Shown: one piece after another, positions 2,233 to 2,302 of the stretch
Layout of the letters: each line of letters begins with the position of its first letter
Position numbering within the stretch: position 1 is the stretch's first letter
Assembly: GCA_002690375.1 (NCBI GenBank)
Contig: NZEH01000016.1
Location: 7,021 to 16,939, forward strand
DNA: 9,919 bases
Reading direction: 5' to 3'
From: Dehalococcoidales bacterium
GTDB lineage: Bacteria; Chloroflexota; Dehalococcoidia; Dehalococcoidales; ARS1013
Position numbers and translations under genes: made by a program
The notes under the pieces: generated by a model
Told to the model about the DNA's origin: nothing
Seen by the model: the letters and a program-made list of their open reading frames with translations, nothing else
Database searches by the model: none

Positions 2233-2255
2233 ACTCGTTGACAATTTAGCTTAGA

Positions 2256-2294
2256 ATTTTAAGTCCGCTGCGTCTGCCATTCCGCCACCCCGGC
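2256..2294 (-). pseudogene. 5' half of tRNA-Leu(UAA), cut just after the anticodon loop
   Basis: Read on the minus strand from 2294, the sequence has a GCCGGGG acceptor strand, a D arm (GCGGAATGGCAGACGC) and an anticodon stem GCGGA with loop CTTAAAA, giving anticodon UAA at 2261-2259. A normal gene would continue with TCCGC to close the stem; here one T is kept (2256) and the sequence departs (TCTAAGC). No variable arm, T arm or acceptor 3' strand follows within the window on this strand. It starts eight bases downstream of the tRNA-Cys CCA, a tandem also known from the E. coli glyW-cysT-leuZ operon. The break in the anticodon loop matches a favoured crossover position of tyrosine integrases, so it is best read as an element border. 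Confidence 0.85.
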
Positions 2295-2302
2295 TAATTA
2301 AC

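What the first reader, a model, noticed from the sequence alone, without database searches (positions are those of the whole stretch)
2249..2302. tRNA-Leu(UAA) split after its anticodon loop, leaving the 5' half next to an intact tRNA-Cys
The 39 bases 2294-2256 (minus strand) are a clean 5' half of tRNA-Leu(UAA); homology stops after the first base past the anticodon loop and no 3' half is present in the 2.2 kb to the left. Integrases that cross over in the anticodon loop normally bring a replacement 3' half and rebuild the gene next to the chromosomal 5' half, so a bare 5' half is unusual. Explanations: the element carries a substitute 5' half and the whole gene sits at the far end; the restoring segment was deleted during decay; or the gene is dead and another tRNA-Leu reads UUA. 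It fixes the right border of the element at about 2256.
Basis: partly seen in the sequence, partly recalled or inferred. Interest (0 to 1): 0.72.

Follow-up and report, generated by a model that had tools for sequence, protein, structure and literature searches.

The report
Mobile element splitting a tRNA-Leu gene
The lone front half of a leucine tRNA gene marks one end of a mobile DNA element that inserts into the tRNA's anticodon loop and, unlike most such elements, carries its own copy of the front half, so that the working gene is most likely rebuilt at the element's other end; related elements do the same to several other tRNA genes.

Summary
Window 2294-2256 (minus strand) matches 39 of 39 bases the 5' half of an intact tRNA-Leu(UAA) that follows tRNA-Cys in a same-family relative; no 3' half lies in the window.

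It is one end of an integrated element of a family I could map in relatives. These elements carry a copy of the 5' half, cross over in the anticodon loop, leave the chromosomal 5' half bare, and rebuild the tRNA at the far end, directly after a codirectional tyrosine-integrase gene. An occupied/empty-site comparison in one genus splits the gene exactly there with a 40-bp duplication. Nine elements show bare 5' half and whole gene as direct repeats, 2-17 kb apart, in Leu, Arg, Trp and Thr tRNAs. The window's end sequence and arm site match them.

Elements leaving 5' fragments are a known but rare kind (159 of 3919 islands; Islander passages). New here: this family's spread over several tRNAs, repeated orientation switches among related integrases, and serial displacement of tRNA-Leu(UAA).

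The parts
2303..2378 (-). tRNA-Cys(GCA), intact; first gene of the ancestral tRNA-Cys/tRNA-Leu pair
   Evidence: ARAGORN; Rfam RF00005 71.2 bits
2256..2294 (-). bare 5' half of tRNA-Leu(UAA), acceptor 5' strand to first base after the anticodon loop; left behind by integration
   Evidence: 39 of 39 identical to intact gene of G038; no 3' half in window
2257..2263 (-). anticodon loop CTTAAAA, inferred crossover (overlap) region
   Evidence: direct repeats in 9 mapped elements end in this loop or one base past it; same element end follows the loop of Leu, Ser, Lys and Trp tRNAs
2245..2255 (-). inner end of the element, TCTAAGCTAAA; inverted counterpart of the TTTAGCTT found just before the rebuilt tRNA at the far end of relatives; probable integrase core site (inferred)
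2218..2243 (-). conserved right-end segment TGTCAACGAGTGGTTTTACGTTCAAA
   Evidence: shared with G127, G009, G120 and G000:C41 element ends
2119..2140 (-). arm-type integrase site (inferred), direct repeat TTAACGCCAAATTAACGCCAAC
   Evidence: identical to right-arm site of the G127 element; a copy with one difference in the 3' end of its integrase gene
2097..2255 (.). right arm of the element
   Evidence: 79.9% identity over 159 bp to the arm of the tRNA-Trp element of G009, 78.5% over 144 bp to the tRNA-Thr element of G050
563..775 (+). 70-aa protein, zinc-ribbon-like start (my reading of CPHC), element cargo
   Evidence: 65% identical to ORFs in L231, the tRNA-Lys element of G120, and in L226; weak PHROG match to Lar-like proteins, E 0.002; no Pfam match
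3..566 (+). C-terminal part of a replication-type protein (inferred), cut by the window edge
   Evidence: 56% over 118 aa to the C-terminus of a 767-aa protein in L230 and 55% over 78 aa to a 685-aa AAA_25 protein in L231, both at loci with related integrases; no Pfam or PHROG match itself

Best explanation
An integrative element of a Dehalococcoidales family is inserted in the tRNA-Leu(UAA) gene that followed tRNA-Cys. Its attachment site is a copy of the tRNA's 5' half. The integrase recombines the anticodon loop of this copy with the loop of the chromosomal gene. The chromosomal 5' half, with the Cys-Leu promoter, stays behind as a non-functional stub (2294-2256). The element's 5' half joins the chromosomal 3' half at the far end and makes a whole gene there, just downstream of and codirectional with the integrase gene. 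The rebuilt tRNA has lost its operon promoter and is probably read from the integrase transcript or from a weak promoter inside the integrase 3' end. Shown: the stub, the right arm, and the whole arrangement in relatives. Inferred: the integrase and the rebuilt gene beyond window position 1, and the transcription.
For: Element end and arm repeats shared with mapped elements. G127: bare half, 6.2 kb element, integrase, rebuilt tRNA-Leu, 40 of 40 bp repeat. Occupied/empty comparison G120 versus G072: flank + bases 1-40 of the gene on one contig, whole gene + other flank on another. Nine elements with a bare 5' half as direct repeat of the rebuilt gene, in Leu(UAA), Arg(CCU), Arg(UCG), Trp(CCA), Thr(CGU). 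In G131, G046 and G035 the two 5' halves differ, as expected if the rebuilt gene's half came from the element (decay of the stub would also give this; in G131 the two lie on different contigs). 6 of 7 genomes with a bare Leu half also have a full copy. Same end beside bare halves of tRNA-Ser(UGA) in same-species G000 and tRNA-Lys(CUU) in G100.
Against: The left end, integrase and rebuilt gene of this very element were not seen. G000 gave no integrase match at E<=1e-40, only remnants at the tRNA-Ser site, and no tRNA-Leu(UAA) match. Of 26 codirectional loci examined for the outer repeat 9 showed it; 13 of the 17 misses had under 10 kb of sequence on that side, 4 had more and still showed none. 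In G090 a bare half exists without a full copy in an 80% complete genome. The promoter claim rests on a crude consensus score.
Confidence: 0.88

Rival explanations
1. tRNA-dependent lysogeny: the element destroys the host tRNA on purpose and carries a separate whole tRNA-Leu(UAA) gene elsewhere in its body.
For: Known in actinobacteriophages (PMC10865867, passages); would also leave a bare half.
Against: That system shares only an 8-10 bp core with the host; mapped relatives of this element repeat 35-40 bp, the whole half, and rebuild the gene at the junction.
Confidence: 0.04
2. The restoring end was lost in decay, and the tRNA-Leu(UAA) gene is dead here, UUA being read by another copy or not at all.
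For: G000, same species, shows no tRNA-Leu(UAA): the loci of its four 82-89 nt tRNAs read as one Leu(UAG) and three Ser, and the Leu(UAA) query gave no match. Between 1060 and 2200 of the window only one ORF of 60 aa or more is listed.
Against: G000 is 88% complete and breaks at this site; 6 of 7 genomes with a bare half hold a full copy; the stub, core and arm are undecayed.
Confidence: 0.06
3. Group I intron or another intron in the anticodon loop, as in the cyanobacterial/plastid tRNA-Leu(UAA) gene (recalled).
For: Same gene and nearly the same position (recalled).
Against: No intron family in the window at E<=1; the following sequence is an integrase-type arm shared with elements in other tRNAs; no 3' exon in the window.
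Confidence: 0.01
4. Assembly chimera at 2256.
For: G000 contig ends at window 2300.
Against: The same kind of junction occurs in independent assemblies, including one titled a chromosome (CP070645.1).
Confidence: 0.01

Closest known systems
Islander-class tRNA islands with a 5' tDNA fragment (PMC4383910, passages read); Zhao & Williams 2002 is cited for this in PMC6563490 (passages) but was not held
   Same: Tyrosine-integrase island between a whole tRNA gene and a displaced 5' fragment
   Different: 159 of 3919 islands there, over all prokaryotes; here a family in one bacterial order that does it in several different tRNAs and whose integrase tree holds both orientations
pTN3/TKV4-type archaeal integrases (PMC5495485 and PMC8371274, passages read)
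   Same: attB is the 5' half of tRNA-Leu, 41 bp shared, whole tRNA rebuilt away from its promoter and said to be expressed from the integrase promoter
   Different: pTN3 integrase is cut by integration; here the integrase frame stays whole beside the rebuilt tRNA, as in G127
Dehalococcoides ssrA and tRNA genomic islands (PMC2764846, PMC3146451, passages read)
   Same: Same order of bacteria, tandem insertions at RNA genes leaving fossil repeats
   Different: The passages report 3' fragments (ssrA, tRNA-Arg, tRNA-Ala); the ssrA integrase DsiB is compared there with CcrB (a serine recombinase, recalled)
tRNA-dependent lysogeny phages (PMC10865867, passages read)
   Same: Bare disrupted tRNA at the junction
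   Different: Short core, tRNA not rebuilt, separate phage tRNA gene

Membership tests
tRNA-targeting integrative element, 5'-fragment type | 5' fragment of a tRNA gene that starts at the gene's first base and ends in the anticodon loop | tested here: met
   2294-2256, 39 of 39, ending one base past the loop
tRNA-targeting integrative element, 5'-fragment type | Whole copy of the same tRNA at the other end, same orientation | not testable with these tools
   far end outside the window; met in 9 relatives and in the G120/G072 comparison
tRNA-targeting integrative element, 5'-fragment type | Integrase gene inside the element | not testable with these tools
   not in the 2.2 kb seen; present in relatives with the same arm
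tRNA-targeting integrative element, 5'-fragment type | Integrase arm and core sites at the element end | tested here: inconclusive
   sequences matching those of mapped relatives at 2119-2140 and 2245-2255; binding not shown
pTN3-type suicidal integrase element | Integrase frame split by integration | tested here: not met
   in relatives, not in the window: integrated G127 keeps a full frame, 466-aa open frame
tRNA-dependent lysogeny element | Core of about 8-10 bp and no rebuilt tRNA | tested here: not met
   in relatives, not in the window: 35-40 bp repeats with rebuilt tRNA
Group I intron in tRNA-Leu(UAA) | Intron covariance-model match and 3' exon | tested here: not met

The most novel reading that the evidence does not exclude
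One integrase family in Dehalococcoidales repeatedly switches which half of a tRNA gene it captures. The anticodon arm is palindromic, so the same kind of enzyme can insert in either direction; the element only has to carry the half that lies between the integrase gene and the crossover. Repeated 5'-type insertions then tear tRNA-Leu(UAA) out of its tRNA-Cys operon and hand its transcription to the integrase gene, leaving a trail of 5' halves.
Probability: 0.5. Interest if true: 0.65.

Novelty: new member of a known kind. Interest (0 to 1): 0.5.

Why it matters
Elements that replace the 5' half of a tRNA gene cut an often essential gene off from its promoter, and are reported as rare. A group of related integrases with 39 loci in one orientation and 21 in the other lets one ask directly how an integrase reverses its target gene, and how an essential tRNA is transcribed once it hangs on an integrase gene. 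It also suggests how a tRNA leaves an ancestral operon, and warns that bare tRNA 5' halves in genome annotations can be element ends rather than dead genes.

Tried and rejected
Searching G000 for the 3' half by pattern found nothing. Looking for the plsY-like neighbour of tRNA-Leu in G000 gave only 41% and 36% hits, probably paralogs, so the far end could not be placed. The junction pattern gave no match in viral contigs; the integrase gave one relative there, on a 13.6 kb contig of which 7.4 kb was fetched, with an arm repeat after the integrase but no tRNA; the window's 3-563 protein gave none. Phage records matched only the tRNA region.

A control against my reading: a Pfam integrase search of 13 single-contig genomes gave 56 matches. 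Of these 50 were examined and none had a tRNA at the integrase 3' end; 10 had one upstream instead, 9 of them codirectional, as in ordinary 3'-type islands (not mapped). Four more had been examined (one codirectional, G123; one convergent, G128; two without a tRNA); two were not examined. So the 39 of 70 figure holds for relatives of one 5'-type integrase, not for the order's integrases as a whole.

Rows dropped: a 17-base hit in L232 was judged chance. In one search, 7 of 15 motif hits (4-5 mismatches, not after a tRNA 5' half) were judged chance. In one search the script counted 12 integrase neighbours; G009 is dropped from my count (integrase 557 nt away, other tRNAs between). In the tree one short row, L216, was left out, and the bootstrap had not fully settled.

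Full report
What is there. The right-hand genes include a DUF4349 protein, CinA, NUDIX, RNase PH, an aldehyde dehydrogenase-family protein, an amino acid kinase with PUA domain and a TRCF-like protein. tRNA-Cys lies at 2303-2378 on the minus strand. After eight intervening bases begins GCCGGGG..., which matches 39 of 39 bases of the intact tRNA-Leu(UAA) that follows tRNA-Cys in same-family genome G038. The match ends at 2256, one base past the anticodon loop. No 3' half exists in the window.

What the break is. The bases after the loop, TCTAAGCTAAATTGTCAACGAGTGGTTTTACGTTCAAA, are not random. With up to 5 mismatches the core of this motif was found at 15 distinct places in the loci held (a set enriched for tRNA and integrase neighbourhoods); 8 of them, including all 7 with 3 mismatches or fewer, lie directly after a tRNA 5' half: Leu(UAA) in the window, G073, G127, G114 and G120, Ser(UGA) in G000, Lys(CUU) in G100 and Trp(CCA) in G009. 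About 115 bases further in, the window has TTAACGCCAAATTAACGCCAAC, identical to the arm repeat of the G127 element, which has a copy with one difference inside its integrase gene. The whole arm 2097-2255 is 79.9% identical over 159 bp to the arm of the Trp element of G009 and 78.5% over 144 bp to the Thr element of G050.

How the element works, from relatives. In G127 the order on one strand is: tRNA-Cys, 3.2 kb of other sequence with several ORFs, bare tRNA-Leu 5' half, a 6.2 kb element with an AAA_25 replication-type gene (inferred role), a tyrosine integrase, and 12 bases after its stop codon the whole tRNA-Leu(UAA). Nine such elements were mapped with both repeats: Leu(UAA) G127, Arg(CCU) G123 and G046, Trp G009, Thr G050, G069 and G107, Arg(UCG) G032 and G035. 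Distances are 2.0-16.7 kb and repeats 35-40 bp. They start at the tRNA's 5' end (in G009 they extend a little further up) and end in the anticodon loop or one base past it. These are 9 of 26 loci with a codirectional tRNA that I examined for an outer repeat (7 of 19, 2 of 7). Of the 17 misses, 13 had under 10 kb of sequence on that side and 4 had more.

Empty-site test. In genus g49, G072 has an unbroken tRNA-Leu locus. Its 5' flank plus tRNA bases 1-40 align at 92.2% to one G120 contig, ending in a bare half; its tRNA from base 1 onward plus the 3' flank align to another G120 contig (82% over 308 and 92% over 667 bp, with about 0.6 kb of G072 between them absent), downstream of an integrase in two pieces. 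The overlap is exactly the 40-bp 5' half. G099 gives the same picture. The "empty" site of G072 and G099 is itself old: it carries a short integrase remnant just upstream of the tRNA.

Source of the rebuilt half. In G131 the bare half beside tRNA-Cys and the 5' half of the whole gene behind the integrase differ in the D loop (different contigs, assumed to belong together); G046 and G035 show single differences. This fits an element-supplied half and a crossover near the anticodon loop, though decay of the stub would also make differences.

How general it is. A search with the G127 integrase (P0001; Pfam Phage_integrase) found matches at E<=1e-40 in 67 of 156 genomes of the order. In 70 integrase loci examined, 39 have a codirectional tRNA at the integrase 3' end, 21 a convergent one, 10 none. 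In the tree of 69 of them, P0001 lies in a clade of 19 rows (17 codirectional, 2 without a tRNA), whose sister pair is convergent (repeats of that pair not mapped); the labelled 59 rows need at least 10 changes of orientation. Using only the 12 rows whose repeats were mapped (9 of the 5' type, and 3 of 15 tested of the mirror type, in which a 43-47 bp repeat of the 3' half ends at the anticodon loop), at least 2 changes are needed. The sample was drawn by similarity to a 5'-type enzyme. In 13 single-contig genomes searched with the integrase Pfam model, 54 of 56 matches were examined and one, G123, is codirectional; 10 have a tRNA upstream of the integrase instead. So 5'-type capture is common in this integrase group, not in the order at large.

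Serial displacement. Of 46 tRNA-Leu(UAA) loci examined (not a random set), 9 still follow tRNA-Cys, 11 sit directly behind an integrase gene or its remnant (the script printed 12; G009 is dropped because its integrase belongs to the Trp element), 23 have neither and 2 lie too near a contig end. In G120 a decayed 5' half remains beside tRNA-Cys, a second bare half with an integrase remnant before it lies 4.3 kb on, and the whole gene is in a third place. I read this as repeated insertion, each moving the working gene further from tRNA-Cys.

Transcription. Stand-alone tRNA-Leu genes score 9.3 of 12 in a simple -35/-10 match over 70 bases upstream (12 loci); rebuilt genes of all kinds score 7.6 (39 loci) against 7.1 for the integrase body (Wilcoxon p 0.0005). 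The excess over the body is small and may reflect AT content, which I did not control. So most rebuilt genes lack an evident strong promoter of their own, which fits read-through from the integrase gene. This step is inferred.

What is not shown. The left end of the window's element, its integrase and the rebuilt tRNA-Leu were not seen. G000, the only held genome of the genus, breaks at the site and lacks any tRNA-Leu(UAA) match. The last 187 aa of a replication-type protein and a 70-aa protein at 3-775 are related to genes at loci with related integrases, which fits an element longer than the 2.2 kb in view.

Known or new. Islands with 5' tRNA fragments are known: 159 of 3919 in Islander (PMC4383910, passages). 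Thaumarchaeal and Thermococcus cases are described in PMC6563490, PMC8371274 and PMC5495485 (passages); Zhao & Williams 2002 and Williams 2002 were not held. In the passages I read of two Dehalococcoides island papers only 3' fragments are described. A search for Dehalococcoidia/Dehalogenimonas integrase and tRNA terms matched 385 papers; none of the 10 listed treats this by its title. I therefore class the window feature as a new member of a known kind, and regard the orientation switching as the more novel, less certain part.

Noticed in passing
L123 (G000:C41) about 9840-9878: Same-species genome G000 has a contig ending in a bare 5' half of tRNA-Ser(UGA) followed by the same element end, with integrase remnants upstream.
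   Followed up: partly
L124 (G100:C1), near its end: Bare 5' half of tRNA-Lys(CUU) with the same element end and a triple arm repeat.
   Followed up: partly
L135, L137, L138, L141, L150, L152-L154: Integrase reading frames run into the tRNA and use a TAG in the tRNA D-arm region as their stop codon.
   Followed up: partly
L048 and L074 (G073): The repeat is 60 bp, 20 bp longer upstream than the tRNA half, and includes a TACAAT/TACAGT box, so this element may bring a promoter part as well.
   Followed up: no
window 1669-1992 (-): Open frame of 107 aa without any Pfam or PHROG match.
   Followed up: no
L162 (G009), around 6722 in the reversed locus: The bare Trp half is itself preceded by an element left end (tagcttcaa), suggesting tandem elements.
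   Followed up: no
G114 chromosome 998846 and 1144871: Whole tRNA-Leu and its bare 5' half lie 146 kb apart on the same strand: a very long island, tandem islands or a rearrangement.
   Followed up: no
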